A stretch of DNA of 64,000 nt from Prostheceraeus crozeri (Eukaryota > Platyhelminthes > Polycladida > Euryleptidae). Numbering within the stretch: position 1 is the stretch's first letter; each line of letters begins with the position of its first letter. Positions 13,609 to 59,522 of this stretch are shown here, in pieces. The position numbers were made by a program, and so were the translations under genes. The notes below the pieces were generated by a model. That model saw only the letters and a list, made by a program, of their open reading frames with translations. It was not told the DNA's origin and ran no database searches. Location of the stretch: contig CAJQUW010005701.1 of NCBI GenBank assembly GCA_907163375.1, positions 248,001-312,000 on the forward strand, read 5' to 3'.

Positions 13609-13634
13609 CATCATGTGTGAGTTTATCTGCTTAA

Positions 13635-13798
13635 AGGGGAATTCCACGCATTTTACAACATGGGCTGAAATGAAAGCTATTATCGAGTAGAACAATGAGT
13701 GGCGATTCGTTTTTGCGCTAGCGATGTTGTTAGCGCTAAAAATAGCTTTAACTGGTGACGTGTGACGTCACTTCGCTGAACAGATGAACGCCTGCCGT
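13635..13798 (+). repeat. Kolobok left terminal inverted repeat
   Basis: 164 bp matching the complement of 26214-26378 with two substitutions and one single-base indel, about 98% identity. It contains internal short palindromes (AGCGCTAAAAATAGC region and GTGACGTCAC). The near identity suggests recent activity compared with the decay of its genes. Confidence 0.9.
13763..13770. promoter_or_regulatory. CRE-like palindrome in left end
   Basis: TGACGTCA is the consensus cAMP-response element (CREB/ATF site). With the hAT removed it lies 94 bp before the start codon of the ballast-domain gene. Promoter function is inference. Confidence 0.4.
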
Positions 13799-14232
13799 CG
13801 AGTCGATTTACTTGCTGCTCTGCGTCAAACAACAGTTAGCTGATGCGTTATTCTTTGTACCAGTGGCGGCGCGAGGACGTTTCGTGCCCGGGGCGGGTCA
13901 TTTATCAGTGCCCCCCTCCCCAATGAACCCCATTCCCAGCCAATTCTAATAAAATTATGAAGATTTATACACCGATTCTTTCCTTCTTTGGGGAACGTGT
14001 ACCTACTATATTTAAGCTTATAAATTAATTCATAAACATTCATATTTTGAGATTTAGATCATTAAAATGTAAAATGAACAACCTCTTAATCACTCGCTGT
14101 GACATTAGCCTAATTATGAAACTGGTAAAGTGCATGTACTAACATCAAAAACAAAATCAGAATATTACCAGAGAATATATTCGAGAGAAAACGGTATAAT
14201 CATTACGTAGACCAACGCACAGTAAGATAAGG

Positions 14233-16967
14233 CTAAATCTGAACTCTGCGCGCCTTGCATTTAGCAAAAACATCAATGCATTCATCAATATCACAATTAT
14301 TCAAACGAAGACGTTCAATAGAAATAAGAGACAAATTATTTAGTCTTGCTTGAGTCATGGTCGATCGTAAGTGGGATTTTATAATTTTCAATTTAGAAAA
14401 GGATCGTTCACATGTTGCGTTGCTAACGCAGACTGTTAAACAAATTCGCAAAAGGACAAACAGATTAGGTACCGATTCCTGAAACTGATGTTTTACGATG
14501 AAAGAGAGAAGGTTATGTGACGTATCGTTGCTCTGATAGTTAAAATCGTCTTCTGAACAAGAATGAAGCAGATACTTTAAACGAACCAGTTCCGGCTTAA
14601 TGCCATCAAGATCCACTTCCTTCTCATAAATGCGCAGTTGATCCAAATCGAAATCAGTGCCTTTCAGGACTTGTGACCTTCTTAAAAAAGAAAAACGCTT
14701 TGCCAGTGTACGATGTCTTTCAAATCTTGTGTCAAATTCGGATTTCACTCTATCAAGACTTGGAAAAGTTCTCTTCTCATTTCATCTTTGAATGACATTT
14801 CTTCATCGGCAGTGTCGTCAAACTGTTGCTTGCGTCTTCTCTTCTTCGTTGGAATATATATATCATTATCCTCTGCAACACTCTCTGCGTTCGAAATTGC
14901 ATTGGTGATGAGGAAATCGCGTTTGTCGCTGAGATATTCACTTAAGCTTGACAACTTCGCTACTGCTTCATCAAGAGTAAGAGTGCTGCGTTGGAGGTAA
15001 AGCTGGACTACATTGATTTCCGTCAAATTGGAGACCACAAATTCATATAACAGACGAAAGGAAAAGTTGACATAGAATTAAACAATATACCGGCGTCACC
15101 ATCGGTTGAAGATAGATCCTCCAGACAGTCACAAATATCAGATAGTTGGTCTTAAAGACGTCAATTGCTTCGTGGTAAGAACTCCAGCGGGTATCCACAA
15201 CACGCTTCACAACCCGAGGCAAAACTTGCTTCATTTCTTCCCATCGTTTTGTGGAATTGGCAAAGAATGCATATACTTTCTGAATTGTTGCAAAGAAAGT
15301 TACCGAGTTGGGAGTTACCTGAGCAGCATGAACTCCAACCAAGTTCAAACAGTGGTTCGAGCAAGGTATGAATTCAGCTTTGGGAAATCTAGTTTTAATT
15401 CGTTGTTGAACTCCATTACGGTAACCGCTCATAACAGCAGCATTATCATAACCCTGGCCAACACAGCAATGCATGTCTATAGCCTGTTTTTCCATGGCAT
15501 CGTAGATAAGTTCCGAAACATCTTCTGCCGTCCTACCTTCCTCTACAATGAAATCGACAAACGATTCAACTACTTTGATCTCTCTGTCAACAACTTTCAC
15601 GTACCTTAGTACTTGGCTCATCTGGACTTTGTGACTTATGTCAGGCGTTGAGTCGAACAAGATTGAGAAATATTTGCACTCCATTACATCCTGGTGAATA
15701 GCATTTCGGATATGTTGGGCAAGAATGCCAACAATTTCGTTCTGAATTTCATGAGAAAAGTACGACACTTTGGACACCTTGTTCATGACATTCATGACGT
15801 GCTCTTTTAGTACGGAATCGTAGTTAGAAATCAGTTTGACCAATGATAAGAAATTTCCTGGGTTGGTTTCATCATCATGAAGACTTTCCCGATGGCCTCT
15901 GAGTGGGAGATTCTGTTGCGCCAAGAAGATAATCATGTCGAATAGTCTCTGGAGAATACTTCGCCATTTCTTTTCGGCTTTCAGAAGCTGTTCCTGGTTT
16001 AAGCGATCAATAGCTTTATCGGATGTCAAGCGTTTTACAAGATCTCTGTGTTTTATGGAATTTGTGAGATGCTTGGTCGACGACTCGTGTTCTTTCACCC
16101 GTGGGTTTAGTTTCCACCATTGATCAAATCCCGTCGTAGCAAAGCTGCTGTCAATATTTGAACGTTCTGAAAAAAGTACGCATGGAAGACAAAACAGTGC
16201 TTTCTTCGACGGAGAGTAGCACATCCATGTCCGCTGAACAACTTCACCATTCGGCAGTGAGATCGAAAACCAATCTGAAGTCAGTGACCGTGTTGATCCC
16301 TTTGTCTCAAGCCCGCGGCGATCTTTCTTCTCAAACGGACCACACTTGTTCTGGAAATATTCCGTTTCAAGACGCGCCACCTCACAACGTACAACATCAG
16401 TTACAGGTGACGACGGCAGCAAACCTAGATCATGCTTCAGGATGAAATGATCAACACTGTTCGGTGTCGGTATAGCCTCACTGGACGGCTGTGACTCGAC
16501 AGGACTCGGAGCAGACGGCTGTGACTCGACAGGACTCGGAGCAGACGGCTGTGACTCGACAGGACCTGGAGCGGACGGCTGTGACTCGACAGGACTCGGA
16601 GCAGACGGCTGTGACTCGACAGGACCCGGAGCGGACAGCTGTGACTCGACAGGACTCGGAGCAGACGGCTGTGACTCAACAGGACCCGGAGCGGACGGCT
16701 GTGACTCGACAGGACCCGGAGCAGACGGCTGTGAATGGAGAGGACCCGGAGCGGACGGCTGTGACTCGACAGGACCCGGAGCAGACGGCTGTGAATGGAG
16801 AGGACCCGGAGCGGACGGCTGTGACTCGACTGTGACTGGACAGGACCTGGAGATGCAGTGGTCTTTACGAATTTCAACATGGATCCTGCCATTTTTCGTA
16901 TTTCTTCTTCTCTCTGCCTCTTGCGCTTCCTTCCAGCCGCTCCACTAGGGTGTTTGTATGGCTCCAT
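14233..16967 (-). pseudogene. ZMYM1-like hAT transposase
   Basis: Read from 16967 down. A basic N-terminus (HPSGAAGRKRKRQREEE) is followed by a long repeat of RPLRVLSSHS-type decamers. A TTF-type zinc-finger region then reads WMCYSPSKKALFCLPCVLFS with a downstream STKH. Next comes the RNase H-like core with SILFDSTPDIS (first Asp), GQGYDNAAVMSG (second Asp block) and CSNHCLNLVGVHAA. The end is the hAT dimerisation domain (CVSNATCERSFSKLKIIKSH at about 14363-14425). All main domains of a TTF-type/ZMYM1-like hAT transposase are present in order, over about 900 residues. Frameshifts lie near 16430, 15125 and 14745, so it is inactive. It is nuclear and DNA-binding. Confidence 0.85.
16484..16830 (-). 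repeat. 30-bp minisatellite in hAT coding, ~11.6 units
   Basis: The unit is GACGGCTGTGACTCGACAGG plus ten more bases, repeated in register with variants (CTCGGAGCA, CCCGGAGCG, and GAATGGAGAGG in two units). It lies in the N-terminal disordered part of the transposase and encodes decamers on the minus strand. It is also open on the plus strand. Confidence 0.95.
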
Positions 16968-16969
16968 AA

Positions 16970-18655
16970 TCTGTTTTTTTTCACTGGATTTACCGTTTCA
17001 AACAGAAGGAAAAAGTTATATTGGTAAAAACGATTTGATGTTCGTCAGCGTTTTTCGATGAACAAGACGACTTCTGATGATTCTGGTGTAGTGTTGTTTT
17101 TTGTAATGTCTGTAAATTTTCGAAGACGAATAGGGTAACAGTATCCGTTTTCGAATCTTCTCATGATGCTCTCATCTCCCTGTCGATGCTCGCGCGGGTT
17201 TGGATCCATCAATTGCACACATCCACTCTCTATCCACTTGGGCAAGCTCATAGAGAATGCTTAGTTGATAGAAGAAGCAGCTGCAAAACTTATGTTACAT
17301 CGACGGTCAAGTCAAGATACTACATTGTGGGTAAGTGTTATCTGAATTCCAGTCCCAATTGTATCAAGTGGCCAAGTTTATCAGAAGAAGGCTCATATTA
17401 AAACGTTAAAACGTTGATGAATGATCTATTGATAATTGGTTAAATCAAACCATGGATTCCTTAATAGTAGTGGCCGGGATGGGAAACTTGAAATTAGGGA
17501 AATACGGAAGAAGGGTCACTACCGCTCGCTCGCTAAAGGTGTGGATGGTAGCACGCAGTTGATATTTGACATGCATAAGTACCTAATCGCCTTTTTTTGT
17601 AATCATGTGCACTGTCTGCCTTGAGAGAACAAGCACATTGTTCGCATCACTACCTTTATATTATCAATACCACGAATATAATAACTAAAAATTCATAGCT
17701 AATAGTTTATTAGCATTAAATGGACCTTCATCTCAAGAGGATAAACGTGTCTAAATTTTGCAGGATCAATTTCAAATTATAATAGCAATACATTCTTTTA
17801 TCCTTGGCTATCGATAAAAATGAAAACAATCAGAATCATAAAAGAAATCGCTTAGTGAATTGAAAAAGTGAATCCAACACAACGGAATTGACAATTGATA
17901 TGTCATACAAAGTTATCTATTATCAGTGTTGTCAACTGACTTTTCAAGAAACTCAGTTAAAACTAGGTTAACCAAGTTTACCAGAAATTAACCAAGTTAA
18001 GTTAAACTCGGTATACTGAGTTTTTCAAAAAAACTCGGTTATAACTCAGTAAAATAATTCGCTAAAACTCAGTTAACTCAGTTACATAAAAATTCATGTA
18101 AAACTGTCAGTATATGCATAGGCCGTCTGAATTTGATTCTGAAAAATTGCATGTTATAAGCGCTCCAGTCAATAACTTTTTCATGAAAGTTTGGGCGTAT
18201 TCACAGGCAGTTGTAGTCTAAGCATAAAAGCAAAATGATAAGATACGCAATAGGTAGATGAAAAGAGAAAAGTAAAGATGGAAACTTAGAAAATGAAAGC
18301 ATTATCTTACAAGGTTTAAGAACGTAACAAAAGAGCTGATCTAAATTCGCACAAAAATATATGACTAGAATGACTGATACTTATAAAAGTAACCAATGTG
18401 TAGACTTTCTATGGAAGGATGAGTCTGTATGTTTATACAAAAAAGATCTGTTTTAGCAGGCATAAGCCTGCTACAGCCTATATACCTAAACTAAACTGTA
18501 TAGCTTCAAAGTTGCGGTACATGATTTTGTCTATAATTGAGATCTAAACTTCATTACTTGTTGTAGCTAAGTTACAGCATCTTCCAGTATAAGCAAAATT
18601 ATCTTGATAATATCTAAAAGGGACATTCAGTAATTAATTGGTCAGCTTATCTCAA
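16970..18655. other. hAT interior, mostly non-coding
   Basis: 17447-17530 is the left arm of an inverted repeat whose mate is near 20087. 17940-18090 is a patch of reiterated AACTCAGTTAA/AACTCGGTT motifs of unknown origin. No gene is recognised. Confidence 0.45.
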
Positions 18656-18659
18656 CTTT

Positions 18660-18768
18660 GGTCTCGCGCATTTTTTACTCATCCCTGCCCAACCCAAGGC
18701 ACGAAGCCATGCTAGAAGCTAGGGATAGGACAGCGCGGCCGTTAGCCAACTGAGCTATCCCACCACCC
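18660..18768 (-). repeat. tRNA-derived SINE or tRNA pseudogene
   Basis: The minus strand begins GGTGGGATAGCTCAGTTGG. TAGCTCAGTTGG (18746-18757) fits an RNA polymerase III A box and GGCTTCGTGCC (18698-18708) resembles a B box. The anticodon arm does not fold well and no CCA-type end is visible, so it is not a working tRNA. A tRNA-headed SINE fragment is the best reading. Confidence 0.45.
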
Positions 18769-19294
18769 AGTATGAACAATACACAAGCTAAAATAATCCT
18801 ACGGAATGCACCAATGTAAATGAAGATGCTTTAAAAAATAAATTAGACATAAAATAATTCGACAAAAACATTTTCTATTCTTCTTCTGTTTCCTACCATA
18901 GCAGTTCCTAAAATCCGTATTCATACATCCAAGTGATTACATTTGCATCACTGCTATAACAGTTTATCAGAGAAGCGGTTTTTCTTTATATTTAGACTAC
19001 GAAGCAAGCATAATATCATATAGAAAAACAATACAAAATATCACGCATTAGTATTACTTTGAACTGTGACATAAATCATCAATTACGCTTCCATGATAAT
19101 GTGATCGAAGCAAGAGCACATTTATCACAACAAATACCTTCAAAAACAAAAGCCGGATAGAACAAATAAGGGAAGTTCAGAAGAAAGTTTTATTGTCGCA
19201 ACATGACAGATGCCTCCAATAATTCCAACTTAAATGCACCTCTTCGAGCTTCGGAAGATGCCACAGACACAGACACATCCTCATATTCATTGCA

Positions 19295-19708
19295 TTACTT
19301 TTGTTGTAGGCCTATGTGCAAAAATATATTTAATTCATGTCTAGAAATTTTTTTAAAAAACATTTTATGCGGTAGGTAAATTGTGACAAGCTTACACAAA
19401 ATTAAGTTTATGTAACCTAAATATTTATAACCAGCGAACTCATTTCGCCTTGTTCGAATATTACCTTGTTGCTGTTTTCTTGAATTGTTAGAATACTCGC
19501 GTTCAATAATGAAGTCGTCGTTTCTAAAACGTTTGAAGCACAAAAAAGCATTCTTTGCTTTATCCCGCGTGAATCCGTCATCTTGATGACGTACTCTTCC
19601 GTACAATTTATCAAAAATCTTTCGAAGTTTATGAAGTTGAAGAGAAACTCCAGGAGACTGATGTCGCAGAACACTTTTATAAAAAAATTGCAATTCGGAG
19701 CTGAGCAC
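19295..19708 (-). other. Unknown open frame inside hAT
   Basis: A 137-residue frame that reads in part LSSELQFFYKSVLRHQSPGV, KLRKIFDKLYGRVRHQDDGF and TRDKAKNAFLCFKRFRNDDF. It is charged and helical in character and looks more protein-like than its neighbours. It does not match any family I know. It may be a captured exon or part of another element's protein. Confidence 0.3.
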
Positions 19709-20574
19709 AGTTAGGCGTCGTCAAGCCTTCACATACGCGAAGTATAAAATGTGACTAAGGAAAGGAAGGCATGTAAACGTATATCTTATCGACTTTTCGT
19801 CTTATAATTCCTCATGAAGTTAAGGCTTTCAACCGTAATGTGTTGTAGAACGGGAACATTGTTTATTTATTTTGCTTGTTCCTCCCTTTGATTTGGCCAC
19901 TGACCAACAGGCTGTAGGTTTCAATGTTCATCACTTGGTCAGAGGTTCTCTCTGTTTCGCGATAACGCACAGGTTTGAGGGAAAATCTGCTTCTCCAAAA
20001 GTGACCCTTCTTCCGTATAGCCGCGATGAGGGAAATTTCACAGTTTCCCATCCCGGCCACTACTATAAAGGAATCCATGATCAAACGAATGCACAAAAAC
20101 AATTGATGTTCTAATCATGGCATGCGGTCGTATGAATACTCAAGAATATATTGTCAGTGTCAGAGTTTATTTTTCAGCTGTTCTTATAATTCATTTCCGA
20201 TCTCGTGCGACGATAGACATGGACAGGAGGAAGAGATAACAAGTTAATCATTTTTCAGTTGACCACCCACGTAGCACGTGTCTCAAATACATGTAATTAC
20301 ATGCAACGCACACACCAACCACACCGATAAATCAACGCTAATTTATGAAATAGACAGAATTAAACAGCGTTAAATGATAAATGTAGATGTAGGTAAATGC
20401 AAATCTGAGTTCTCAGATTGAATTTTAAATGAAATATTTGATTCGAAAATCATATCAACATTTTTCAAGATTTAGATTTCCCCGAGCGAGCCTCTGACCG
20501 TGCCCCTTGAATCTCGGTGCCCGGGGCGGACCGCCCCCCGCCCCCCCCTAGCGCCGCCACTGCTTTGTACGTTG

Positions 20575-20606
20575 ATGGAATCGGACGAAAATCATCAGAA
20601 TCATAG
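20575..20606 (+). CDS. Ballast-domain gene, first coding exon
   Basis: ATG at 20575 encodes MESDENHQNH plus two bases of an Arg codon. It is followed by a consensus donor (AG|GTGAGT at 20605-20612). Joining it to the acceptor at 21933 keeps the frame and gives HQNHR-IAPYLHEPRAP. The exon starts four bases after the hAT target duplication, so the hAT split the 5' leader from the rest of the gene. Confidence 0.6.
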
Positions 20607-21042
20607 GTGAGTAGACTGAATTGATTAATTTATTATTACCTACTTTACTGTAGATATTTTCAATTCCATAAGGTGCTCAGAATTGTGATTTAGTCCTTCA
20701 AAACCTATTTTGATTCTTATATGATTCTAAATTCGGATTCTCATTACCCGAAGTTCGACGCTTGCGTCGAAAAAATCTTATTGACCACTCTATTGACAAA
20801 TCATTGTCGAAAGTCTACGATGTTCAATGTGAATGTGAACCAGGCTTAACTTTTAATGTTGGCAATAGATATAACACATAACGTAATAACATGAAATTAA
20901 CCTAATATACTCGAGTATATTTTGATAAGCAGTGAAAATGACAGTGAAGTATGAAAACACTTATCAAGTGAATCAATGAACATCTATTATTACAGCAGCA
21001 GACTCATTTTGCAATAGACTTACTGTTCACTTGCATCCAAGC

Positions 21043-21790
21043 TCAGACAATGCCCGATCCCGAATGTAATATATGCAAGCGTAGGACTTCTAAAAATATT
21101 GCCTGTCGCCACTTGAATGTCTTTGGTTCAGAAATACGCCTTCTAATCCATCGTTTTGTTGACTTCCGCCATTCATTCTTGAATTTCGTATTATCACTAT
21201 GGCTACCGATATTGAAATTATGATCCATAATAGCCAGCATGACACGACATCTATAATAATCTTGGCGAAAATGAAGTCTTTTAGGAGCATATTTCAGAAG
21301 TACAGAATGGAAGCACTCCAGAGCTGACGTATGAATGAACATACTCATTTGTCGAATGTCTTTTACTAATTTTCGGTCCGTCACTATTTCGAAAATCTTT
21401 TGGAAAGCTTTAGAGTTAGGGTCTAACCAAAGCCGATCCTCCTCCAACGGCTCATGAGCACACTTCAAGAAATATTGTCCTGTCGACCATTCATGAACAT
21501 TGGCTATATGTTTACTGATCGATTGAAATTTTTCGATCAAAACATCACGATGTCCATCACAAGAGGCGGCGGGGGGGTGGGGCGGCGGACCACCACAGGT
21601 GGTTACAAATCGATTTCGTCCATAAAGCAATATCTTCGCAATCGGATGATGACGCTGCCATGTGAAGTCGCTTTTTAAGACTTTTGGCTATATGCCAAGG
21701 GTCAAACTCATGACGAATGGATGAAATGCATTATTATCTATCGCGATCGTTACCGCTCCAGTGAAAGGATGTGTTAATATGATTAATCTA
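21043..21790 (-). pseudogene. Kolobok transposase, C-terminal part
   Basis: On the minus strand the reading HEFDPWHIAKSLKKRL (21692-21712 for HEFDPWH) is followed by WTKSICNHLWWSAA, then CDGHRDVLIEKF, NVHEWSTGQYFLKCAHEPLE, SALECFHSVLLKYAPKRLHF and AIMDHNFNIGSHSD, to the stop at 21043. This is the conserved C-terminal half of THAP-containing Kolobok-type proteins: a FD-WH block with a probable catalytic Asp, an HLWW block, and an LE-FH block with the probable catalytic Glu. A GC-rich insertion of about 16 bp after WWSAA shifts the frame, and stops lie upstream near 21745. It is not functional as it stands. Confidence 0.75.
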
Positions 21791-21933
21791 TTATTTTATT
21801 TTTCTGATAAATAAGAAGGAAATTAGAGTATACTACTTCTCCTTATTTATGAAACCTCCAGATCACAACCATAATGTATCTGTCATTTGAATCACTGTTT
21901 TTTTATTTATGGCTTCTATCCTTTACATTTTAG

Positions 21934-22371
21934 GATTGCTCCGTACCTGCATGAACCTCGTGCACCAATGGATTTCAATGCAAGTTCGTCAAAAATTCAT
22001 CGAGGAAAGAAGATACTCCTTCCATAATGCCTCTTGAAAGCTGGTGTTGGTGTGGTCGATGTATGATAATGCCAAATCTCAAAGAAAATAGCTGCTGTTG
22101 GTCATTGAAAGAAGCATCTGAGCGTCGCGGAGAAGCAGCTTGTGTAACGTTGGTTGAAGGTTTCGAAGCTTGTTGTCTCAATCAGGAAGTTTTACGAATG
22201 TGTATGGCGCGAGATCGAATCAGACGATCATTACCTCCAGGTGTTCGAAACCCACAAAATATAGATTACGGACATAATTCATACGCAAATTTCATTAATT
22301 GGATTTTCAGCCATTCTTCACGCCCATCTGTACGAATTGATTCATTCTTGTTGCGTACTAATCATCCGTGA
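21934..22371 (+). pseudogene. P2X7 ballast-like (ZCD) domain gene, main exon
   Basis: After the acceptor TTACATTTTAG (AG at 21932-21933) the frame reads IAPYLHEPRAPMDFNASSS. A frameshift near 22025 leads into ESWCWCGRCMIM, CCWSLKEASERRGEAACVTL, GFEACCLNQEVLRMCMARDR and SYANFINWIFSHSSRPSVRI, ending at 22371. The spaced cysteines (WC-x-C-x2-C, CC, C, CC), the GFEA-CLN-VL block and the final W-x5-S motif match the zinc-binding cytosolic tail of vertebrate P2X7 and the invertebrate proteins named 'P2X purinoceptor 7-like' that lack a channel. No P2X channel part is present. Length about 157 residues with the first exon. One frameshift disables this copy. Confidence 0.7.
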
Positions 22372-22523
22372 ACATTTCCCGAATCCTGCTGATGTTCCTT
22401 ACGTTGGCTTTTGTGGTATGTACTGATAGTGTGATTATATGCATAATCGTTTTGGAAATACGTAAATTACATATATCTATTACTGTATCTTCTCGTTTTA
22501 TATTATTAGTCACAGAATAATTA

Positions 22524-24353
22524 CAGCTGCGGCCATAGGTATCCGGACACTATCCAATTTTCTAGTAAATTATTCTTTTTTTCAAATAAATGTGTTTTGT
22601 ATTTCCACATAACTTTTTTCTGGTAAATAATTAAATTCTAATAATTTTTTTAACAAACTGAAGGCTGTACGAAGAAAAATGACATTATTTTTTAATTTGT
22701 GCTTTTAATTTCAGCTATTTATATGAGGTTTATTAATTTCAGGAGTTTTAGTGTTTTTTTTCAGCTTAGATTTTTCTGTTACAATTATTATTGCCGTCAA
22801 AAGATCTGATGTCCAGAGTATCAAAAACTATATTTGAGCAACATAACAGATAATGTAGGCTTTATAATGATGTCAGAAGTAATCAGTATCTGGTTGGAAA
22901 CCTCTGTGATTGAGAACGGCTCGAAGTCTATCAGGAACACTGTTTACAAGTCTTTGACAATCACTTTCGTCAATTGACCTGTACCAGCATGTATAATCGC
23001 GGAGATGAGCTCTTTTCCGGTTTGATGGCATCTTCGTTCAACAATTTTTCCAACCATGGCCCAAAGATTCTCGATTGGGTTGATATCCGGGCTTTGGCCA
23101 GGCCAGTCACTAATCCAACGGTCGAGATGATATTTGTTAAAGTATTCCTTCACTGCCTTTGCTCGGTTGACATGGCGCATTACCGTCCATAAATACGCCA
23201 TTGTGTTGATGAAGTTCGCGATCTGAGTGATCCAGTTCATTCTTTAGTACCTCCAGGTAGACATGCTGATTTATTCTTTCTCCTTTTTCGAAGATCTTCA
23301 GTCTTCCAATGCCGTTCCAAGACATGCATCCCCATATCATTACCGATGGGGGATGCTTGAAGGTTGGTAAAACACATTGTTTAGAATATCTTTCTCCTGG
23401 ACGTCTCCAAACTTTTATGCTGCCTCTGTTTCCATAAATATCGAACGAACTTTCGTCTGAAAATATCACACGTTTCCAGAAGTCGTCACATTTTTGAAGA
23501 TAATGGCGAGCAAACTTCAAACGGCGCTGTCTCTGGAAAGCGTTAATAAACGGCTTCTTCGAAGTTCTGCGAGATTTTAATCCTTGTTCTCTCAATCGGC
23601 GACGAACAGTTCTCACACTAAGAATCTGGGCTGGATGAACTCCTCCGCGAATTTCAGCAGCACTGGAAAAACGCGACTTCAAACATTCTCTCACTAAGCA
23701 TCTGTCAGTAAATACTGTTGACTTCCGAGCTGAACCTTTACGTTTTGGTTGGAGATCCAAACCCATCTGGTCGTTTGATCCAGCGCTGCTTGATGTCACT
23801 CACGGTAGACTTGGTATGCCAGTACGCTCAGATACTTTTCGAATTGAAATATCTTCACGTAATAGAGTAATAACGACAGCTCTTTTGCGAGGAGAGATTT
23901 CTTTTGACTTGGGTATTTGGTTTAGCGACGACCATACACAGAGCAATAACGGAAGGCACTGTTTGTCACACGATATGAACTACGAATGATTCTAAAATTG
24001 CTAACTGACACGCGTGTGTTGCAATTGTGAGGTTGCAGATACGTCGACCGATTCCATTGGCATCGCTTTCTACCAATGAGATTGCAGGAAACCTGTAAGC
24101 ATTGATAGTTAAAGAAACACTCTCATGGGGAATCGGATGACGTCAACCATGGTGCTCTAAGAATAACAGCACGCTACTGTTCAAGACAGCTACAATATGA
24201 ACACATTTCGTCTACTTTTTGATTCACTATAACATAAATTTAGTTGAAGATGTCGCACGACTAAAGATTACCCACCTATGGAAAAAATATAACTTCGAAA
24301 CTTCAAAAACTCCATATCTTTCATACGCGTCCGGATATCCATGGCCGCAGCTG
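22524..24353 (-). mobile_element. Tc1-like transposon, 1830 bp
   Basis: Ends start CAGCTGCGGCCATAGGTATC at 22524 and, on the other strand from 24353, CAGCTGCGGCCATGGATATC. They are about 26 bp with three mismatches, and each is flanked by TA (22522-22523, 24354-24355). One transposase is encoded on the minus strand. It sits within the Kolobok element, between its two transposase segments. Confidence 0.9.
22873..23940 (-). pseudogene. Tc1/mariner transposase, DD37E-like
   Basis: The minus strand reads an N-terminal helix-turn-helix (RAVVITLLREDISIRKVSER near 23840-23900), a second DNA-binding part (VRRRLREQGLKSRRTSKK), then VIFSDESSFDIYGNRG with the first catalytic Asp. VFMDGNAPC follows with the second Asp, and DWPGQSPDINPIENLW with the final Glu. 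Counting across the single-base frameshift near 23180 puts 37 residues between the second Asp and the Glu, compared with 34 in classic Tc1. Further frameshifts lie near 23800 and 22990. The C-terminal reading LVNSVPDRLRAVLNHRGF runs to a stop at 22873. About 340 residues originally; inactive now. Confidence 0.85.
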
Positions 24354-24355
24354 TA

Positions 24356-25196
24356 TAATCTCCATTGAAAATTAACTGGATACTGTGAAGTATTTAGCCT
24401 ACATTATTATTAAGTACCGTCCCGTACTCATGAATATGCCTAATTAATTTGAGTGTAAGGCATGTTTCGTTTAAAAATATAATTCATTTTTTTCATAAAC
24501 CTGTAGGTAAAATTGCCACGTATGATAACGAATATCTCAACAGACTAATTCTATTCTCGAATCTCTACCATTATCGGACAATGAAAAATTATCAAAATGA
24601 TATTAATAAGTGTTAGTATTTGATAATCATTAGATATCTGCTAGCTAATAACTTTGATTCTTGTTAAAAGATACTATTAACATAGATCGGATTACTAGCA
24701 TAATCGTTTTGTATTTGCTTTATATGAAGACTTATTAGTAAAATAACTTCAAATCCATACTTCGTTGTTATAGCTTGATGTAGTTTTGAAATAGATGTAC
24801 ATCAAATCCAGACAAATTGAATGTCATACTCGTAAGTTAGAAATTCGTGGACAGCCCACTAACAGATTAGTAAGTTTACCTGATTTAGGCCTATGCTAAT
24901 TTTGTATTTAGTGTATATATTTTTCATCTCATTTTCGGCTACCGTTTCCGTCTGTAATTCTTTTTTTAAGATTGAATACAAGAATATTTTTAAGCCAAGT
25001 TACGTTTTACATTCGGGGCGCGTTTACAATAAGATCAAAATCAGGGTTTCATTATGTTTTTGAATCTTTAAAATCGACGGATTGCATTTGAACCGCATAA
25101 ATATTGAATTTTTAGCAATATCCAGGTTATTAAATTAACGGTATGCCTATGATCAGATTATGATGATAAAAAGACAGCATCGCCAACTAAAACTTA
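24356..25196. other. Kolobok interior without recognisable coding
   Basis: The stretch of transposase between the GDGR motif and the FD-WH block should be encoded between 25196 and 21790. I find no convincing reading here on the minus strand. It is probably deleted or is an intron. Confidence 0.4.
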
Positions 25197-26123
25197 TCTC
25201 CCATCACCGACTAAAACTGCTGATTCCATGCGAATTTACTGCTGCCGTCACATCATCAAGTTGAGTTCGATAACATTTCGTCACAGTGGGTGAAATCCAA
25301 TTACTTTGCGATTCATAGAATAACGACTTCGATGGAACAGACAAGTTCATTGTCTCAGCAATTTTACACAATGTTTGATGTGTATTACCGGACAGAATTG
25401 TTGCAGTTGGGAGGGCAATATTTCCTAAGTATATATTGGTATTGGGTAATTTACTTTGGGATTCCCAGAGATTCTCGTGACCTTGGATGCAACTTGTCTT
25501 AACTTTCACCACGGAACCGATTATTTGGCGTTCGGTTACGCCGCTTTCTAATGGAGAACCACATTGGTTACACCATTTAAACAAATTCAGCAAATTTGAA
25601 TCGTAGACAAGATAACAGCTTTCATTAGCCAAAGTACAAGCCGTCACACCTAAGTCAGCGTCATATGAATCATTCGTTTTCATCCGATGAGTAGGGTCAA
25701 AATCATCGTTCGACTTGTCAGATCTATCAGAATCAAAAATTTCAGAGTTTGAAGGATTAGTGATAAGTTGATGACCAGTTGAAGAAGAGGAATCACATTC
25801 CCGAGAAAGACGGTAGATCTTGGTTTTGGTTTGGGAGTTGGATGGCTTGAAATGGGTAGATGAAGAGTGGGAATCGCTGTTGATTTCAGTGGTCGTTTGC
25901 ATTTAGGCCTGTCTTCTAGTTTCAAAAGATGATAATGAGTCTTTTAGAACGAATCTTCTGAAAAATGGTCACTGCAAATCACTGCATTAGATGTCGGATT
26001 GAAGTTTTTACGTCGGCACGCGTCTGTGCATTTCTTTCGGAGGCGCTTGTCTTTCGGAAAAGTAAACAGTCTTTTTCCTTTTCCTGAAGCCGTAGAGCAG
26101 CCGAATACAGCGCAATTTGGCAT
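25197..26123 (-). pseudogene. Kolobok transposase, THAP and N-terminal part
   Basis: The ATG at 26123 begins MPNCAVFGCSTASGKGKRLF, then FPKDKRLRKKC and VICSDHFSEDSF. This is a THAP zinc finger (C-x4-C, then C-x2-H about 45 residues later). After one stop it continues KCKRPLKSTAIPTLHLP, the usual short block after the finger. A frameshift follows, then a Ser-rich stretch, KWCNQCGSPLESGVTE with a CxxC knuckle, VVKVKTSCIQGHENLWESQ and ILSGNTHQTLCKIAETMNL. It ends at VLVGDGR (25197-25208), where the Asp is probably the first catalytic residue. This is the N-terminal half of a THAP-containing Kolobok transposase. The start lies 119 bp inside the CRE-like site of the right end. Confidence 0.8.
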
Positions 26124-26213
26124 CGCCGCGTCAATATGATAAATGATCGTGAGGTTATTGTGGGCTCCTACACGCGACTCTCTGTTTGATTCGACATTGC
26201 ATTGGTCGCATAT

Positions 26214-26378
26214 ACGGCAGGCGTTTCATCCGTTCAGCGAAGTGACGTCACACGTCACCAGTTAAAGCTATTTTTAGCGCTAACAACATCGCTAGCGCAA
26301 AAACGAATCGTCACTCATTGTTCTACTCGATAATAGCTTTCATTTCAGCCCATGTTGTAAAATGCGTGGAATTCCCCT
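26214..26378 (-). repeat. Kolobok right terminal inverted repeat
   Basis: 165 bp, mate of 13635-13798, ending GGAATTCCCCT next to TTAA at 26379-26382. Confidence 0.9.
26243..26250. promoter_or_regulatory. CRE-like palindrome in right end
   Basis: TGACGTCA, the mirror of the site in the left end. It lies upstream of the transposase start codon. Confidence 0.4.
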
Positions 26379-27141
26379 TTAATATTAAATCTTCTTTCAC
26401 CATGTAGATTTCGCCACTTTTTGATGTGTTGCTAATACGCTTCAAATATAGTAGTACAAATATTAAAAATTTCTATAATAAGAATTGAATTTCTAAAATT
26501 TTCTTTTAGGAAGAATTGCTCCATTATCATAAGAATGAAACGGTAAAAGTTTGATCATATTGAAAGCAAACAGTGTTCGCCTTAATTACCCTGAGGAATC
26601 GCCACTGCTTCATGTCCTAAAGACATATCATGCCTAAAACTGTGGCTGGAGTTAATAGGTCTCTCATAGCCGGAGTTAACACATGAAACTGATATTTTGG
26701 TCGAAAACTTCAATTCAAAACTGCGCGGATGAGCGGTTTGAGGTGCGCGTGCTCGGATGAAGGTCTCGGAAAAGTATTCTTTTGTTAGGGACAGAGCTGT
26801 GGAGCCGATGCGTTATCTCAACGGCACCGGCACCACGACACTGATGTGAAAGGCTCCGGCTCCAACTTCAAATTCAGGTTCTATCTATGCTGGTTATCCT
26901 GGATCCGTTGAACGGGTTTTTTGGATAACGGTGTGGCCTTTAGAGGTTTGCTACAATCATCAAATCAGTTTTCATTAACAAGCAACGACTTAAGTTAATA
27001 ATAAAAATGATAATAGCCTAATATAATGATAAATAGCATACTTGTCATATATTTTTGCATGAATTGACTATCTCTGAAAGATAAAATAAAGTTATAGCCT
27101 GGATTGGTTTAATTAGATAAAGATCTCCCGCAGTGGCTAGA
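26379..27141. other. Spacer with hAT-terminus-like motif
   Basis: 26804-26820 reads ACAGAGCTGTGGAGCCG, like the CAGRGCTGTGGAGTCGG ends of one common hAT group, and GGCTCCGGCTCCAAC follows at 26851. A related motif (ATCGGAGCCGGAGCC) is at 30412. The mirror-image terminus is not found, so no element is called. No gene is seen. Confidence 0.4.
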
Positions 27142-27143
27142 TA

Positions 27144-28545
<1,402 letters not shown>

Positions 28546-28547
28546 TA

Positions 28548-31278
28548 TAAATTGGCCTAGCCTGCAACCAGTCTACTACGAGGCTACATTAAATAAGACC
28601 ACATGAGTGATGATGATATACCTAATTAGCCGTCACAGGGGCCGAATAGTAGCATAAGCTTTTTAACAAAGCGTGAATATGAAACTGGATAGCGTATGCC
28701 TCTAAATATCTTATAGGGCCTGTATCTACTCGAACATGGAAAGGGTATACGCTTTATAGCCAAATATACCGTATCAATAAAGATATCAATTGCTTTATTG
28801 AATATTAAAGTGTATATAGGCTAGCTTAGGTTGTTATTGCTATGTCATTGCCTTTATCCAATAGTCTGTTGGTCCATGAATAATATGATCGGTGGGTATC
28901 CCACGACTCATCATCTGTAGAAATTGTAATTTAGATAGTCTCATTGCAGTGTAGGCTAGAAATGTACAATTGAAAATTATACTTAAAAAATTAAAAATAT
29001 CTAATTTAGGACGAGTTTTGTAATTCTATGCAGCATACTTAATAAGTGAAGGCTTAACTTACATTATGTTAATTTCGTATTTTTCATTATGGCGTAAAGT
29101 TGCACTAAATAATTCATCAATGATTCATGCATATTATTATATTCAATTTATGTATAACATATACCACTATTCCTCTGATGATGGTTAGGCAGATGAAACT
29201 GAACTCGGAGTATCACACAGCATGTTGCAGGGTGCAATGCATAATAAAAATTTGACTGCGAGCATCGAGCAGAAATCCCATCTACTTTGCTAGCTTTCGA
29301 ATGCGCATGCGGTTTAATGTCACAGACAATAGAAAAGGGAGGTCAAAAGGCGCCTTTATTGAGAGCGTCTCAGTCTTTTTTTATTGTTTACATATAAGTC
29401 AACATGATATCAGCATAAAGTGTTGACAGACGGAAAAAATAATAATGAAAATTCTTGAAATCCACAGGTCTATGACATTTGGGAAAATATTATTACACAA
29501 TGCGGCTCTTGTGCAGTCCTCCCCCCCTCCCCATTTTTTCTCTGGTCAAAAGATGCAGCACCATTGGATGTCCGTTTCAGCATCACCGGTTTGAGTGAAG
29601 CATTCCGTGCTGTTGTAAAAATCTACGTGGGTAATTGCGATGTCATAGTCGCAAGCTTCGTCAACAAGTCAACATTGTAATTTGCCTTCGGGTTTTTTCG
29701 CATTGAAATATACCCTTTGAATTTTGAAGTCAAAGGAAATTCATTGTGAATGAGATACCTTTAGAATAATAAGGCGCTACTAGAAGTGGCTGGGTCGCTT
29801 ATTGCTATAGCCATGCGAGGACTTGTAGTCAGGTCATTCGTGTGAGTGTGAAGAGTTATCCCTCCAATCAAAATTGATCAAATTGAATAATCGATTGTTT
29901 TGAAAAATGTAGGTGGGGGGACTGCACAAGAGCCTACAATACAATCCAAGGAAATTGGCATTGTCACAGATGCCAGTAGCCATACCGATGGATGGTAACC
30001 TACATAGTAACCGTATTAGATTTAAGAAATTGCGCAAGAAATGTAGCTATATTATCTTTGCTGACTGAACTGGAAATGTGTACATAAATGACTGGCGACT
30101 TGTCTCTAGGAATCTACAATCATCTAGTTAGCATGCATATAACAAGTCTTCAAATTAATGGATTTTGGAGAATACGTTGTCACTAAAAGCTATGGAAATT
30201 AGTCTTGCGAAAAATATGTAATAAACAATATTACACATGTGTGTAAATATAATACATATAATACAAAAGAAGGCGCAACTGCAAAGAAAGATATCGTGGA
30301 GGACATACACGGTATTCATTGGTATACTTAAAAGACATATCTTCAGATTTCAAATGATGTAATTTTTTTATGCCTGAATGAAAATTCTAGATTTATATCA
30401 AAGCTCAAACTATCGGAGCCGGAGCCTTTGTGATAAATCGGCTCCGACGAAAACCATCGGCTCGGTTATAAATTTAGAAGAGATGTTTTTTGAAATCCCG
30501 GTAGCTTATTTCTTTCTCGTAAATGCATGCATACAATCAAGTTTTTTTCTACTAGAACTACTACTTTGACTTTATTTAACATGATTCAACTTTTAGGCTA
30601 TCGATGAAAATGTATGTAGACATATAACTGAAAGTGACTTTGATTTGATATCCGAATTTTCTAACTGATATTTGTGAGTTAAAACGATTGGGATGTTTTG
30701 TTAAGATTAAGGTTAAAATAACGTGTTTTCATTTACTTACGTTTTCATCAGCTAAGTTTTAGCTCAAAGCATAATTAGCTTGGAGCCTGTTATCGATGTG
30801 GTTGAGCTAAAATGGTCATTCGCATCAGTGATCTTAAAGGAAGAAATAGATCGATATATTTCTAACTTGGCTCACGTGCGCGGAAGTCAGGTTATGTGAC
30901 TTATAACGTTTCATATAAGTTTCTATGCTTTAAATATCTTATAGAGCTTCAAAAGTAAGCACGCCTCCATCTGTTTAACATCTGATAAGCTCAAAATATT
31001 AGTGCTCCAACACAATTTTTCCAACAGCTATGAACGAAAGACAGCAGAGAAATATTACATCAAAGTGAATTCACCAGCTATGAATGTAATTCTCAACCAA
31101 AATCCATAGATGTATAATTTTTTTTCAAATTTTGTATGTAAATGTGTTGATAGAATTCTTTTTACCATCAGACTTGTAAAAGAGACAGTCGAAATATTGT
31201 CATAATAAGATCTTATTTATTGGCCTCGTCTTTTCTTTTTATTTATTTACTCTACCGGCCAATGGCGAAATTCATCAT

Positions 31279-31433: not shown

Positions 31434-32267
31434 ATGTACATACCGAAGCATTTCCCGGACAATCTCGCATATTTCTTTACTGTCTTCATGGTGATTTATA
31501 TAAGTATATTTCAAATATTCGTAATGCTTCCGTTATATTATAACATGTCAGATGTCATGTTCTGGGTACATCTTTTTTTCGGAATTTTAATTCTTATCAA
31601 TGTGATTGGTAATCTGTATAAACTGATACATGTTGACAGCACTATTCGTGGTGTGTTTTTTGCGGCGAATTCTACGACGAATTGGCGATTCTGCTCTGTT
31701 TGTGAAATACCTTGTCCTCCCAGAAGTTACCACTGTTTTCTGTGTAACGTGTGTATTCTAAAGCGTGATCATCATTGTACGTTTACTGGATCTTGTGTCG
31801 GGTTTCGTAATCATCGGTACTATTTGTTGACAACGATGTACTTCTCTTTGGCTGCTATCTACGCTGCAGTTTTCAATACTAGTTACGTCGTTCAAGTTAT
31901 TGGTGGCTGGGGATTTGTACCAATTGTAAAAATGATCTTGCCGCTTTTTTCTTTCATCATTGGTAAATTAACCCTTGTTCAAACCATATTTGCTTTAACC
32001 AATGTAGCCTGCATAGGTGGTGGCATGTTGTTGATTACATTGACTTATTTTCATTGGGTCATCCTTGCTGCCAGAAATAGAACTGTTTTTGAACGAGCCA
32101 AACGAATAAATGACTATGATTTGGGTTGGCAAACTAACCTTTATCAAATTTTTGGTAAAAGATGGCTCATAACATTTATTTGCCCATGGTCAGAATCTGA
32201 ATTACCAGTGGATGGCATCACTTATCCTATGAAGGGTGGACGTCAAGAAATATTCAAAAATCAATAA
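31434..32267 (+). CDS. DHHC palmitoyltransferase, ZDHHC24-like
   Basis: Adds palmitate to protein cysteines at Golgi/ER membranes by an acyl-enzyme on the DHHC cysteine. The 277-residue protein has two hydrophobic N-terminal segments (about residues 12-32 and 42-62). The DHHC cysteine-rich domain (about residues 80-130) contains RFCSVCEIPCPPRSYHC and RDHHCTFTGSCVGFRNHRYY, keeping the zinc-binding Cys/His set and the catalytic Cys. Two or three further membrane segments follow (about 135-215). Length and layout fit ZDHHC24, although the ZDHHC11/24 group cannot be separated by eye. The ATG at 31434 follows a TTTTTCGTTTCAG acceptor (AG 31423-31424), so the whole coding region is in one exon with an upstream leader exon. 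The frame is intact and looks functional. Confidence 0.88.
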   Translation: MYIPKHFPDNLAYFFTVFMVIYISIFQIFVMLPLYYNMSDVMFWVHLFFGILILINVIGNLYKLIHVDSTIRGVFFAANSTTNWRFCSVCEIPCPPRSYHCFLCNVCILKRDHHCTFTGSCVGFRNHRYYLLTTMYFSLAAIYAAVFNTSYVVQVIGGWGFVPIVKMILPLFSFIIGKLTLVQTIFALTNVACIGGGMLLITLTYFHWVILAARNRTVFERAKRINDYDLGWQTNLYQIFGKRWLITFICPWSESELPVDGITYPMKGGRQEIFKNQ

Positions 32268-34620: not shown

Positions 34621-37600
34621 CACTAGGTGACATTCCCACGCGTAACGGAGCACCCCAAACATCCGTGGTTAAGGCATGGACTTCTAAATAGTAGCTACTG
34701 GACATGAAACTTGTCGAGTGAAAGCGTTGTGTCTTGCAATTGGAGGCCAGTGAACGCGCAAATGAAAACATTGTACTTAGTCTAATGAACAATGCAAGCA
34801 GGCGTGAGCTTTGCAGCCGTCGACGTGTTATTGATCTACGACCAACCTTGATTGTGAAGTCAATTTATGATGCAGCGCGTGGGAAGCACGTTGTTCTCCT
34901 TCTGATCGTTATGCCGAATAAGTGCGCCGCTGTCGGATGTACATCTGGATACTCAAACCACACAACTGCACCACATGTAACGTTTCATCGATTTCCTCTC
35001 AAAAATCAGGATTTACTTCGAGTTTGCATTAATCGAATACCTCGAAAAGACTTCACACCAACTCAAAACAGTCGCTTGTGCTCCCTACATTTCGTGGAAA
35101 CCGATTTCTCAACCAGCAGCGTTGACATTAATGTAACGCGGAAGCGTAAACGTGGTGATCAGTCACTACAACGAAGAGTTTTAAAATCCGACGCCATTCC
35201 ATCTCTTTTTCCTAACCTTCCTGTGCGTTTTTCATCGACTCCAGTGTCTCGCCGAAGTGAAAAGGCAACGTCGAGTTCTCGTATCCAAACCCAAAATGAA
35301 AACTTTGCAGATCTTGCTGAGCAAATGCTCTCCGAAGATACAGTATCTTCGATCGAAGAATTGCACAGCGGCTTAACTTCAGAAGTAGCGAAGCCGACAG
35401 GATTTCATTTGTTTTTTAATAATGGAGTATTGATCATTGGGCTAATTGACTCTTCGCATGTCCCGTTGTTTAAAGTCTCAATCGTCGTCGATCGTGAAAT
35501 GTGTGCTCGTGCCTACTTGAAAAATGTTCTTCTTGTGTCTTCGCAGTATAATCATATAATTCCTGAAAAAGTAACAGCTGTTTCTCAAATAAGCAATCTG
35601 ATGTCATTTTTAAAATCTATATGAAGACTACGTCCCTAATCGCTCCATTCAAGCGTGCATAGATTATCTCGAGGATGCATTAGAAATGTACGATGATGTT
35701 CAGGAATCATCTCGATTGAGATTTCTGATTGAACAATTGAAATTGTCGACAACTTCCAAACATGGGCGACGGTATACTCCCGAAATTATCGTTTTTTCTT
35801 ACGTGTTGTATTCTGTAAGCTCATCTGCCTATGTTCAATTATGTAACAGTAATGTTTTATACTTGCCATCTGTGAGAACATTGCAAAAGATCACGAAAAT
35901 GACGAGTTCTAATGATAAACTCGATGATAATGAGTATTTGAAACTTCGAATATCGAAATTAAATGATTTCGATAAATCTGTAATTTTGGTGATTGATGAG
36001 ATTTACGTTGCAAGACGGCCAGAGTTTACTGGTGGTCGTATTAGTGGTTTGACTGGTGATTGTGATATAGCGAGGACAGCTCTGTGTTTTATGATAAAAT
36101 CGTTGAGTTCGAAATATCGAGATATTGTTGGTATCTTCCCGATAAAATCCTTGACTGCTGATAAACTTTTTGAATGCTACAAGCATATAATGAGCATTCT
36201 ACATAACATAGGATTTCTTGTAAGAGCCATTTTAGTGGACAACAGCCATCCCAATCGTAAATTTTTTATTTCCCATCTCTGTGGTGGAACTCTTAAACCA
36301 TCTGTTGTGAATTTCTGGACTAATGAAGAAATGTTTCTGATTTTCGATCCGACACATAATGTCAAGAATATTTATAATAACTTTCAAAAACGTCGAATTT
36401 TCCAATGTCCCTCCATGCCACGATATTTCGATGGTGCAACTGCCAAGTTTTCTTATCTTGAGTTTGTTTTTGAAATTGAAAGTGATAAACCCATGGGTCA
36501 TAAATTGACTAAAGCCGTTTTAATGCCCAAAAGTATCGAAAAAATATCGGTAAAATTGTCATCTGCCGTTTTACATGAGTCGACGATTAATGCTTTGTAT
36601 CACTATGTATTTTAAATCATATTTTGTACCTATTGAAAATTAACTAGTCATTAGCTTGTTTTTTCTTTATTTTTATTTTTGTTACCTTGACGCACTTTGC
36701 TACGTTGAATTATGGTCGCCATGAGACCGCTTCTGTTTTGGGATTGTTTCCGAAAGTATGGAAAGTGTTAAATGTTAAAACCACTTCTATAGGCCATCAT
36801 AAGCGTGACATAGCTCGCGATAGTGTGTCTTCTATTAACGACTGGAAACTCTGTTTTAGAAGAGTTTGCTGACTTCCTTGAACGGTGGGAACAAAGTAAT
36901 GGACAAGGGATGACATCGGAAACTTTTCTTGCGAATATTCTGACATGTCGCGCATTACCGGAATTTGCTAGCTTTCTGATGCAGTCATGTGGTTTCAAAT
37001 ACGTTTTGTTGGGCAACAATCCGACTGCTTGGAAGGAAGATTTGGATGGATTCGCCAACTTAGTGGTGCTAATTATTATATTTCTGTACGTCAACTTTTA
37101 GAAAGCTGTAATAAGATCAAAACCATATCGCTGATGAAGTTCTCTCATATTGATGTGAAGACGTTGTCCTGCATAGCTTCACAAAATTCAAAAGATTCAG
37201 ATTGTGTGAATAGTGCTTGTGCTATTGAAATTTATACCTGTCTATCAACGTTTCGTGATCCTGATGATAGTGTTGGCAGTGATTTATTATGTGGCTGGAG
37301 CTTGTGCCCGATCTGTCTCTCGTATCCATAGATGTAGCCTATATATTGCAAGGATAGTTTAGTTGAAGAAAAGACCCCCTTTGAATTTGAAATGGAAGAA
37401 TCACCAGAGGCTTCGAAATTTCTGAGAGAAATTGACCGAGGTGGATTGTTAGAACCACGTGATCACACTTTTCAGTTGTGTATTTTTGCATGGAAAGTTT
37501 TTTCAGACATCACATCATCGCCTTCTCTATTAAGTCAGCTTTTATCGGCTCCTAATCAAACTTTGGTTTTTACCAGCGTCGTCGAAAACGTAATCAATGA

Positions 37601-55735: not shown

Positions 55736-56199
55736 AAATGTCCTCAATCATAATCTAGAATAAATACATGTATACTCGTATATAGGTATTGTAAAAATTA
55801 TTTCTTATGTGTTCATATATAATTCCATGATTAACTGATTGGCCTTTATATTCAAACTATTCATTTGGATCGAATAAGAACTAGTTATGATGTTTATATT
55901 TTAAACCAAGTTCCCCAAACAGTATTATCAGGGAATCCGTAAAACCGATCTTCGTTTTCTGCACTATATTTGTGAGATCTTTCGACCACTGCACGCGGCC
56001 ATCGTCAGACAACTGAATGAGATACAGCTTATTGAAAACAGTTAACACAAATAAACATCACTTCAAAGATCAATCCAACAGAATGACAAAGATGAGAAAT
56101 TATAAAAGAATGGCTGAAAAATACTACTAACAAAGGACACAAGTAAGCATAAGATAAGGCACAAAAATCCAAAAAGAAAGGAAAAACTATCAGTCAGAG

Positions 56200-59007: not shown

Positions 59008-59198
59008 CTCTGACTGATAGTTTTTCCTTTCTTTTTGGATTTTTGTGCCTTATCTTATGCTTACTTGTGTCCTTTGTTAGTAGTATTTTTCAGCCATTCT
59101 TTTATAATTTCTCATCTTTGTCATTCTGTTGGATTGATCTTTGAAGTGATGTTTATTTGTGTTAACTGTTTTCAATAAGCTGTATCTCATTCAGTTGT

Positions 59199-59227
59199 CT
59201 GACGATGGCCGCGTGCAGTGGTCGAAA
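59199..59227 (+). ncRNA. Hammerhead-like core in Penelope 3' region
   Basis: CTGACGA (59199-59205, the CUGANGA box), then GGCC...GGTC as a possible stem II, then GAAA (59224-59227). The same core lies in the left arm on the other strand. Penelope-like elements are known to carry hammerhead ribozymes. I could not place a convincing cleavage triplet and stem I/III pairing, so this may be a decayed or merely similar motif. Confidence 0.35.
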
Positions 59228-59522
59228 GATCTCACAAATATAGTGCAGAAAACGAAGATCGGTTTTACGGATTCCTTCATACTGAATATAAATGATGAAT
59301 ATTCCGTTGTTTCAAACTAGTATTATCAGGCTTCACCAAATGGTTCATCGGACAGAATTGGGGGAGGCAAATCGACCGCTTTGCAAATGTGGTAGGGCCA
59401 TGACCCTGCAACCCCCCCCCCCCGGTTCCGCCGCCTATGTTGAGTGCCTATCCATTGTTTAGGAACACGCATTCTTCTTTGATATATATATATTTAATAA
59501 CTTTAATATATTTAATAATTTT

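What the first reader, a model, noticed from the sequence alone, without database searches (positions are those of the whole stretch)
20575..22371. P2X7 ballast-like domain gene inside a Kolobok-type transposon
A two-exon plus-strand gene within the TTAA-flanked element encodes the zinc-coordinating cysteine domain (WCWCGRC, GFEACCLN, SYANFINWIFS) known as the cytosolic ballast of vertebrate P2X7 and as free-standing 'P2X7-like' proteins in many invertebrates. If this is a normal second gene of Kolobok elements, it would explain why these proteins are so numerous in invertebrate genomes. It would also suggest that the P2X7 tail came from a transposon accessory gene. I do not know of a description of this link.
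Basis: partly seen in the sequence, partly recalled or inferred. Interest (0 to 1): 0.92.

Follow-up and report, generated by a model that had tools for sequence, protein, structure and literature searches.

The report
Broken Kolobok transposon carrying KolX gene
The sequence is a damaged copy of a known kind of animal jumping gene (Kolobok) whose second gene, KolX, is related to the tail of the P2X7 receptor; the link between the two was already published in 2022.

Summary
The observation largely holds. A Kolobok-type DNA transposon (13631-26382, ~168-bp inverted ends 98% alike, TTAA at both) carries a plus-strand two-exon gene with a P2X7-ballast domain (Pfam P2RX7_C). This copy is a wreck: a 6.7-kb hAT-type insert, a Tc1/mariner-type insert, a ~547-bp deletion and at least two frameshifts in the ballast gene. 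Own-genome copies (about 4.75 kb) show the design: THAP transposase on one strand, KolX on the other, each gene's second exon inside the other's intron. Of fetched copies with both ends and both transposase exons at least 80% covered, 9 of 9 carry KolX. Genome-wide, 63 of 150 scored ballast matches lie within 5 kb of a Kolobok transposase exon (chance about 0.1), 63 of 63 antisense; 45 more fall in copies of a 2.5-kb element that has KolX but no transposase found; 42 are unassigned. So: a new member of a known kind. KolX's role in transposition remains unknown.

The parts
13631..13798 (+). left terminal inverted repeat with its TTAA (13631-13634); the element proper begins AGGGGAATTCC at 13635
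   Evidence: 40 matches of this end scored (78 candidates) in own genome
26214..26382 (-). right terminal inverted repeat, 98% identical to the left one, TTAA at 26379-26382
20575..20606 (+). KolX exon 1 (ATG, 32 nt, then GT donor)
   Evidence: same 32 nt in L021; found in 29 of 30 stretches examined, missing in L034
21934..22426 (+). KolX exon 2 (ballast domain), broken by at least two frameshifts; 22424-22426 matches the stop of open copies
   Evidence: Pfam P2RX7_C
22027..22371 (+).
21043..21726 (-). remnant of the transposase C-terminal (DDE) exon, antisense inside the KolX intron; its 5' part is lost in a ~547-bp deletion at 21726/21729
25197..26127 (-). transposase N-terminal exon with THAP region (approximate limits, mapped from L021 by hand); the window ORF 25204-25902 gave no THAP hit, so the frame is broken here
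   Evidence: THAP E=7.3e-17 in the L021 exon; mapping
13861..20562 (.). nested hAT-type insertion, ends CAGTGGCGGC/GCCGCCACTG, 8-bp target duplication CTTTGTAC (13853-13860 and 20563-20570)
   Evidence: DUF4371 hit on ORF 15043-16422; that DUF4371 goes with hAT is recalled
22522..24355 (-). nested Tc1/mariner-type insertion at a TA; the empty site is seen in L011, L014, L021, L027
   Evidence: HTH_Tnp_Tc3_2

Best explanation
The finding is one decayed copy of a Kolobok DNA transposon of the kind that carries KolX (Kol0 lineage by gene content), about 4.75 kb when free of inserts. SHOWN: TTAA target, 5'-AG/CT-3' ends, a THAP transposase split by one GT-AG intron on one strand, and on the other strand KolX, a two-exon gene for a 177-aa protein (in L021) with the P2X7-ballast domain; the transposase intron holds KolX exon 2, and the KolX intron holds the transposase DDE exon. 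SHOWN: KolX accompanies the transposase in the nine full copies fetched and in a related family, and between families it bears the mark of purifying selection. INFERRED: KolX is a soluble accessory protein of transposition. My guess at how: the ballast of P2X7 binds zinc and GDP, and KolX keeps residues matching rat R546, H547 and R578, so it may be a zinc-stabilised, guanine-nucleotide-bound part of the transposase complex, somewhat as P-element transposase needs GTP (recalled). Many of the free-standing 'P2X7-like' genes of this genome are then transposon genes, not host genes.
For: TIRs and TTAA. Differing outer flanks (by eye). P2RX7_C in the window ORF, in P0001 (E=1.6e-19) and in L021 (E=2.3e-20). 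THAP E=7.3e-17. KolX exons in 9 of 9 copies with both ends and both transposase exons at least 80% covered (rows; with the script's looser cut-off 10 of 11, the miss L016 being a deletion derivative). Splice sites. Same exon order in L047 and L048, two copies of one family about 61-63% identical in the DDE exon, and in L035. 63 of 150 scored ballast matches within 5 kb of a transposase exon, 63 of 63 antisense, about 0.1 expected by random placement; by contig name 19 of the 63 are the window's own family, so 44 are other families. pN/pS of KolX L021-L048 0.37 (bootstrap 0.27-0.47), L048-L049 0.49 (0.38-0.61), L021-L049 0.62 (0.50-0.78); transposase DDE exon L021-L048 0.26. Profile match to P2X7 chains E=2.8e-12, residues 473-593. 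Published precedent: Kojima & Bao 2022.
Against: The Kol0 placement rests on gene content, not on a tree with reference Kolobok transposases. The DDE exon gave no Pfam hit above cut-off, so 'Kolobok' rests on ends, target, THAP, DPWH motif and KolX. Of 122 merged transposase loci 59 have no listed ballast match within 5 kb, partly because both lists were capped and broken KolX copies fall off (the window's own copy is among the 59). 42 of 150 ballast matches remain unassigned. KolX exon 1 was not located in L047 or L048, so interleaving on the KolX side is shown for the window's family only. Synonymous sites are saturated in the pN/pS comparisons. No expression data. The accessory role and the nucleotide idea are untested; R574 and K583 are not kept, and Rump et al. 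say that only R546 and R578 are conserved in invertebrates.
Confidence: 0.95

Rival explanations
1. A host ballast-domain gene was captured once by a transposon, or lies by chance in the interval between two ends.
For: Of the 31 contigs with a scored TIR match, 10 lack most of KolX exon 2 (hand tally).
Against: None of those ten has both transposase exons at least 80% covered: they are internally deleted or truncated. All 9 copies with both have KolX. A family about 61-63% identical in the transposase has it in the same place. 63 of 150 scored ballast matches sit beside a transposase exon.
Confidence: 0.02
2. A true P2X7 receptor gene or its tail exon in the host genome.
For: Profile match to the P2X7 C-terminus.
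Against: The genome's 13 P2X channel matches (18 of 18 candidates scored) lie on C3332, C8300, C11391 and C4722, none of which bears one of the 150 scored ballast matches; the window's contig C4742 has no P2X match.
Confidence: 0.01
3. The element is piggyBac-like, since piggyBac also uses TTAA and a few piggyBac families are reported to carry a KolX-like protein.
For: TTAA targets; report of KolX-like C-termini in a few piggyBac families.
Against: No piggyBac transposase domain among the hits of the ORFs scanned; THAP domain present; ends are 5'-AG/CT-3', the RR/YY pattern that the paper gives as the Kolobok distinction; the ballast cysteines are kept, whereas the piggyBac versions lack most.
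Confidence: 0.01
4. KolX is not needed for transposition itself: a passenger, or a protein that counters host silencing.
For: 59 of 122 merged transposase loci have no listed KolX within 5 kb (a capped comparison); in the KolX-only family coding changes look near-neutral (dN/dS 0.64 between subfamilies, few sites).
Against: KolX is constrained between families and present in the nine full copies; neither shows what it does.
Confidence: 0.3

Closest known systems
Kol0 lineage of Kolobok transposons with the KolX protein (Kolobok-1_XT type), Kojima & Bao 2022, PMC9587614
   Same: TTAA target, RR/YY ends, transposase plus a second protein KolX similar to the P2X7 cytoplasmic ballast
   Different: No difference found in what was tested. 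The interleaved antisense exons and KolX-only elements are not mentioned in the parts I read ('antisense' has 0 occurrences in the main text). Repbase was not available, so whether this family is listed is unknown
P2X7 receptor cytoplasmic ballast / ZCD (Rump 2020, PMC7016195)
   Same: Cysteine pattern WCxCGxC...CC...C...PSC, RH and R578 equivalents, GF near the end
   Different: No P2X channel part; lies in a transposon; R574 and K583 equivalents not kept
Nanor (zebrafish) and free-standing ZCD proteins
   Same: Short proteins with the domain only; the paper says Nanor aligns with KolX along its whole length
   Different: Not compared with this sequence here
piggyBac families with a KolX-like protein (reported in the same paper)
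   Same: TTAA target
   Different: Other transposase; lack most of the seven cysteines

Membership tests
Kolobok superfamily | TTAA target duplication | tested here: met
   TTAA at each end that matched from the first base of the query and whose flank was in the stretch; outer flanks differ between copies (by eye)
Kolobok superfamily | Termini 5'-RR ... YY-3' | tested here: met
   TTAA-AG...CT-TTAA; rule
Kolobok superfamily | DDD/E transposase with C/DxxH motif | tested here: inconclusive
   DPWH read by eye in the L021 exon; no Pfam hit above cut-off for that exon; no alignment to reference transposases
Kolobok superfamily | THAP domain in the transposase (recalled as common in Kolobok; the word is not in PMC9587614) | tested here: met
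   PF05485 E=7.3e-17 in the L021 exon; frame broken in the window copy
Kol0 lineage | Second protein KolX with ballast domain | tested here: met
   P2RX7_C E=2.3e-20 in L021; P2X7 chains E=2.8e-12 with profile A2; KolX reference sequences themselves were not at hand
Kol0 lineage | Place in the Kolobok transposase tree | not tested
   no reference transposases at hand
P2X7 ballast fold | Seven conserved cysteines | tested here: met
   3+2+1+1 pattern invariant in the four sequences (L049, P0001, L048, L021); the CC pair falls in shifted columns against P2X7; which residues bind zinc was not looked up; the window ORF has six
P2X7 ballast fold | Same three-dimensional fold | tested here: inconclusive
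   single-sequence model of P0001 had mean pLDDT 41 and was not used
P2X7 receptor | P2X channel domain in the same gene | tested here: not met
   P2X matches on four other contigs only
piggyBac | piggyBac transposase domain | tested here: not met
   no such hit in the ORFs scanned

The most novel reading that the evidence does not exclude
Transposase and KolX work as a two-part system that can be split between elements: in this genome copies of a 2.5-kb element with KolX and no transposase found, and transposase loci without a listed KolX, exist side by side, so KolX-only elements may persist by supplying KolX in trans or by using it in cis.
Probability: 0.06. Interest if true: 0.55.

Novelty: new member of a known kind. 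Interest (0 to 1): 0.28.

Why it matters
It supports, in one more animal genome and with counts, a published point: genes annotated as free-standing 'P2X7-like' in animals may be transposon genes. In this 2.05-Gb genome 108 of 150 scored ballast matches are tied to Kolobok-type loci. That is a practical warning for gene annotation and for studies of P2X7 origin. The open question, what the ballast does in a transposon, can be tested.

Tried and rejected
Selection on KolX in transposase-less elements: I first thought the many open frames of about 205 aa meant selection. Thirteen copies (L049 and 12 fetched, L050-L061, most of them picked because one search showed them open) gave dN/dS 0.64 between subfamilies (4 against 5 copies) and 0.62-2.59 against L049, with two copies lacking synonymous changes and very few sites in all; youth explains it and the idea is dropped. 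A first pN/pS run misregistered sequences holding stop codons; it was rerun and is not used.

Structure of KolX from one sequence: pLDDT 41, unusable; no fold search was made. PF20700 (Mutator) as a second transposase probe gave only 2 matches. Relatives in viral contigs and genome contigs: none. Protein database: only P0001. Host species not identified. Papers: Kojima & Bao 2022, text parts 1-4 of 6, section 16 and found passages; Rump 2020, found passages only; PMC9319628 and PMC13093298, found passages only, which do not treat the link; McCarthy 2019, seen only as a citation; others, search listings only (in one search, 20 of 61 papers were listed).

Full report
OBSERVATION. ORF 22027-22371(+) matches Pfam P2RX7_C at E=1.2e-7, above the cut-off. 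The element around it is real: inverted ends 13631-13798 and 26214-26382, 98.2% alike, both beginning TTAA-AGGGGAATTCC. Own-genome search places the window on contig C4742 of a 2.05-Gb assembly with no name and finds 68 matching pieces, the longest at about 96% identity, with 40 of 50 candidates scored, and 40 scored matches of the left end from 78 candidates.

ANATOMY. I fetched 29 stretches picked from the copy search and 9 more: seven on contigs with an end match that I had not yet fetched, and two with weaker copies, L047 and L048. TTAA stands at each end that matched from the first base of the query and whose flank was in the stretch; outer flanks differ by eye, so the element is mobile. 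Copies without large inserts are 4.6-4.8 kb. In L021 the plus strand has KolX exon 1 at 233-264 and exon 2 at 2132-2633 of the oriented element, together 177 aa; P2RX7_C E=2.3e-20. The minus strand has an N-terminal exon with a THAP domain (E=7.3e-17) and a DDE exon with the DPWH motif, joined by a GT-AG intron with matching sites in L021, L047 and L048. KolX exon 2 lies antisense in that intron, and the DDE exon lies antisense in the KolX intron. The exon order DDE-KolX-N is the same in L047, L048 and L035; KolX exon 1 was not located in L047 or L048.

THE WINDOW COPY IS BROKEN. Against L021 it is interrupted by a hAT-type element at 13861-20562 with an 8-bp duplication CTTTGTAC, a ~547-bp deletion at 21726/21729 and a Tc1/mariner-type element at 22522-24355 in a TA. 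Six of seven ballast cysteines are in the frame of the ORF.

NORMAL SECOND GENE, NOT CHANCE. One search examined 37 stretches (29 + 7 + window; L047-L049 left out). KolX exon 2 is at least 90% covered in 26. By the rows, nine copies have both ends and both transposase exons covered at 80% or more (L011-L014, L018, L021, L026, L027, L030), and all nine have both KolX exons; with the script's looser cut-off it is 10 of 11, the miss being L016, a deletion derivative. Coverage is of DNA and does not mean open frames. The 29 stretches were found with a query that spans KolX, which favours KolX-bearing copies; as a check, the 40 scored end matches lie on 31 contigs, of which 21 carry KolX exon 2 and 10 do not (hand tally), and none of those ten has both transposase exons at 80%.

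GENOME-WIDE. P2RX7_C gives 150 matches, 150 of 262 candidates scored, all 150 over the cut-off. The DDE exon of L021 gives 134 matches, 129 of 430 candidates scored. 63 of 150 ballast matches have a transposase match within 5 kb, 63 of 63 on the opposite strand; about 0.1 is expected by random placement. By contig name 19 of the 63 are the window's own family. In 52 the DDE exon is on the 5' side of the ballast domain, as in L021; in 11 it is on the 3' side, another layout. Of 122 merged transposase loci 63 have a listed ballast match within 5 kb and 59 do not; the window's own copy is among the 59, so this is a lower bound. P2X channel matches (13; 18 of 18 candidates scored) lie on four contigs that bear none of the 150 scored ballast matches.

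KOLX-ONLY ELEMENTS. L049 holds a 2.5-kb element with TTAA at 2018 and 4510, 28-bp inverted ends (93%) starting AGACCCAGTCCGCCC, and an open KolX frame; no transposase ORF was found, only a weak THAP-like remnant (E=6e-4). Only this copy was read end to end. DNA search gives 78 matches, 40 of 202 candidates scored, 88-100% identity for the long ones. On contig C3634 eleven ballast matches stand in a row, nine of the ten steps 2647-2651 bp. Of the 87 ballast matches without a listed transposase nearby, 36 fall in this family (taking the C3634 row as one interval), and 9 more lie within 2.5 kb of its left end (read by eye: C11308, C2077, C11595, C5081, C13461, C11186, C10630, C505, C10894). So 63 + 45 = 108 of 150 are tied to Kolobok-type loci and 42 are not. 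TTAA ends were seen only in the window's family and in L049.

SELECTION. KolX pN/pS: L021-L048 0.37 (bootstrap 0.27-0.47), L048-L049 0.49 (0.38-0.61), L021-L049 0.62 (0.50-0.78), with saturated synonymous change; transposase DDE exon L021-L048 0.26. Within the KolX-only family nothing departs clearly from neutral.

MECHANISM. Shown: a partner gene kept across families, kept cysteines, a profile match to P2X7 residues 473-593. In that alignment KolX keeps residues matching rat R546, H547 and R578, which Rump et al. list among the GDP contacts, and not R574 or K583; Rump et al. themselves report only R546 and R578 as kept in invertebrates; the window ORF has lost the first. Inferred: KolX is a zinc-stabilised accessory protein of transposition, perhaps nucleotide-bound. 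That P-element transposase needs GTP is recalled. A passenger or counter-silencing role is not excluded.

WHAT IS KNOWN. Kojima & Bao 2022 (PMC9587614) state that Kol0 Kolobok families encode a transposase and KolX, that KolX is similar to human P2X7 476-595 with the ballast fold and seven conserved cysteines, and that P2X7 arose by fusion of a P2X4-like gene with KolX, Nanor being a likely domesticated KolX. Rump et al. 2020 described the domain across animals; the term 'transpos' does not occur in its main text. My other searches listed no further paper on the link; two listed papers that held some of the terms were checked by passages and do not treat it. The finding is therefore a new, decayed member of a known kind; the interleaved exon layout, the KolX-only family and the genome-wide counts are the additions, as far as the library searched goes.

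Noticed in passing
L049:2018-4513 (G000:C8314) and G000:C3634:151072-180161: A 2.5-kb TTAA-ended element with an open KolX frame and no transposase found, with many copies, and a row of eleven ballast matches at about 2.65-kb steps on contig C3634.
   Followed up: partly
C5605, C10127, C10915, C7297, C5408, C3233, C9207, C9873, C8566, C1276, C1625 (places): Eleven loci where the transposase exon lies on the 3' side of the ballast gene, several with transposase open frames of 350-800 aa: a second gene layout, perhaps without the split exon.
   Followed up: no
window 13861-20562: hAT-type element with a DUF4371 ORF and 8-bp target duplication; a 60-bp tandem repeat at about 16483-16830 beside or in its coding part; within it an inverted pair 17451-17520/20000-20079, perhaps the ends of a further nested element.
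   Followed up: partly
window 27141-28548: mariner-like element with 31-bp perfect inverted ends and a Transposase_1 domain ORF.
   Followed up: no
window 34734-36615: THAP domain ORF followed by an ORF with a TNP-like RNase H domain: a P-element-like transposon.
   Followed up: no
window 55926-59281: 1.2-kb inverted repeat at 99.6% identity; one arm lies in a reverse transcriptase ORF, the other in an ORF whose end looks by eye like a GIY-YIG region: perhaps a Penelope-like element copied head to head.
   Followed up: no
window 31434-32267: DHHC palmitoyltransferase ORF of 277 aa, probably a host gene.
   Followed up: no
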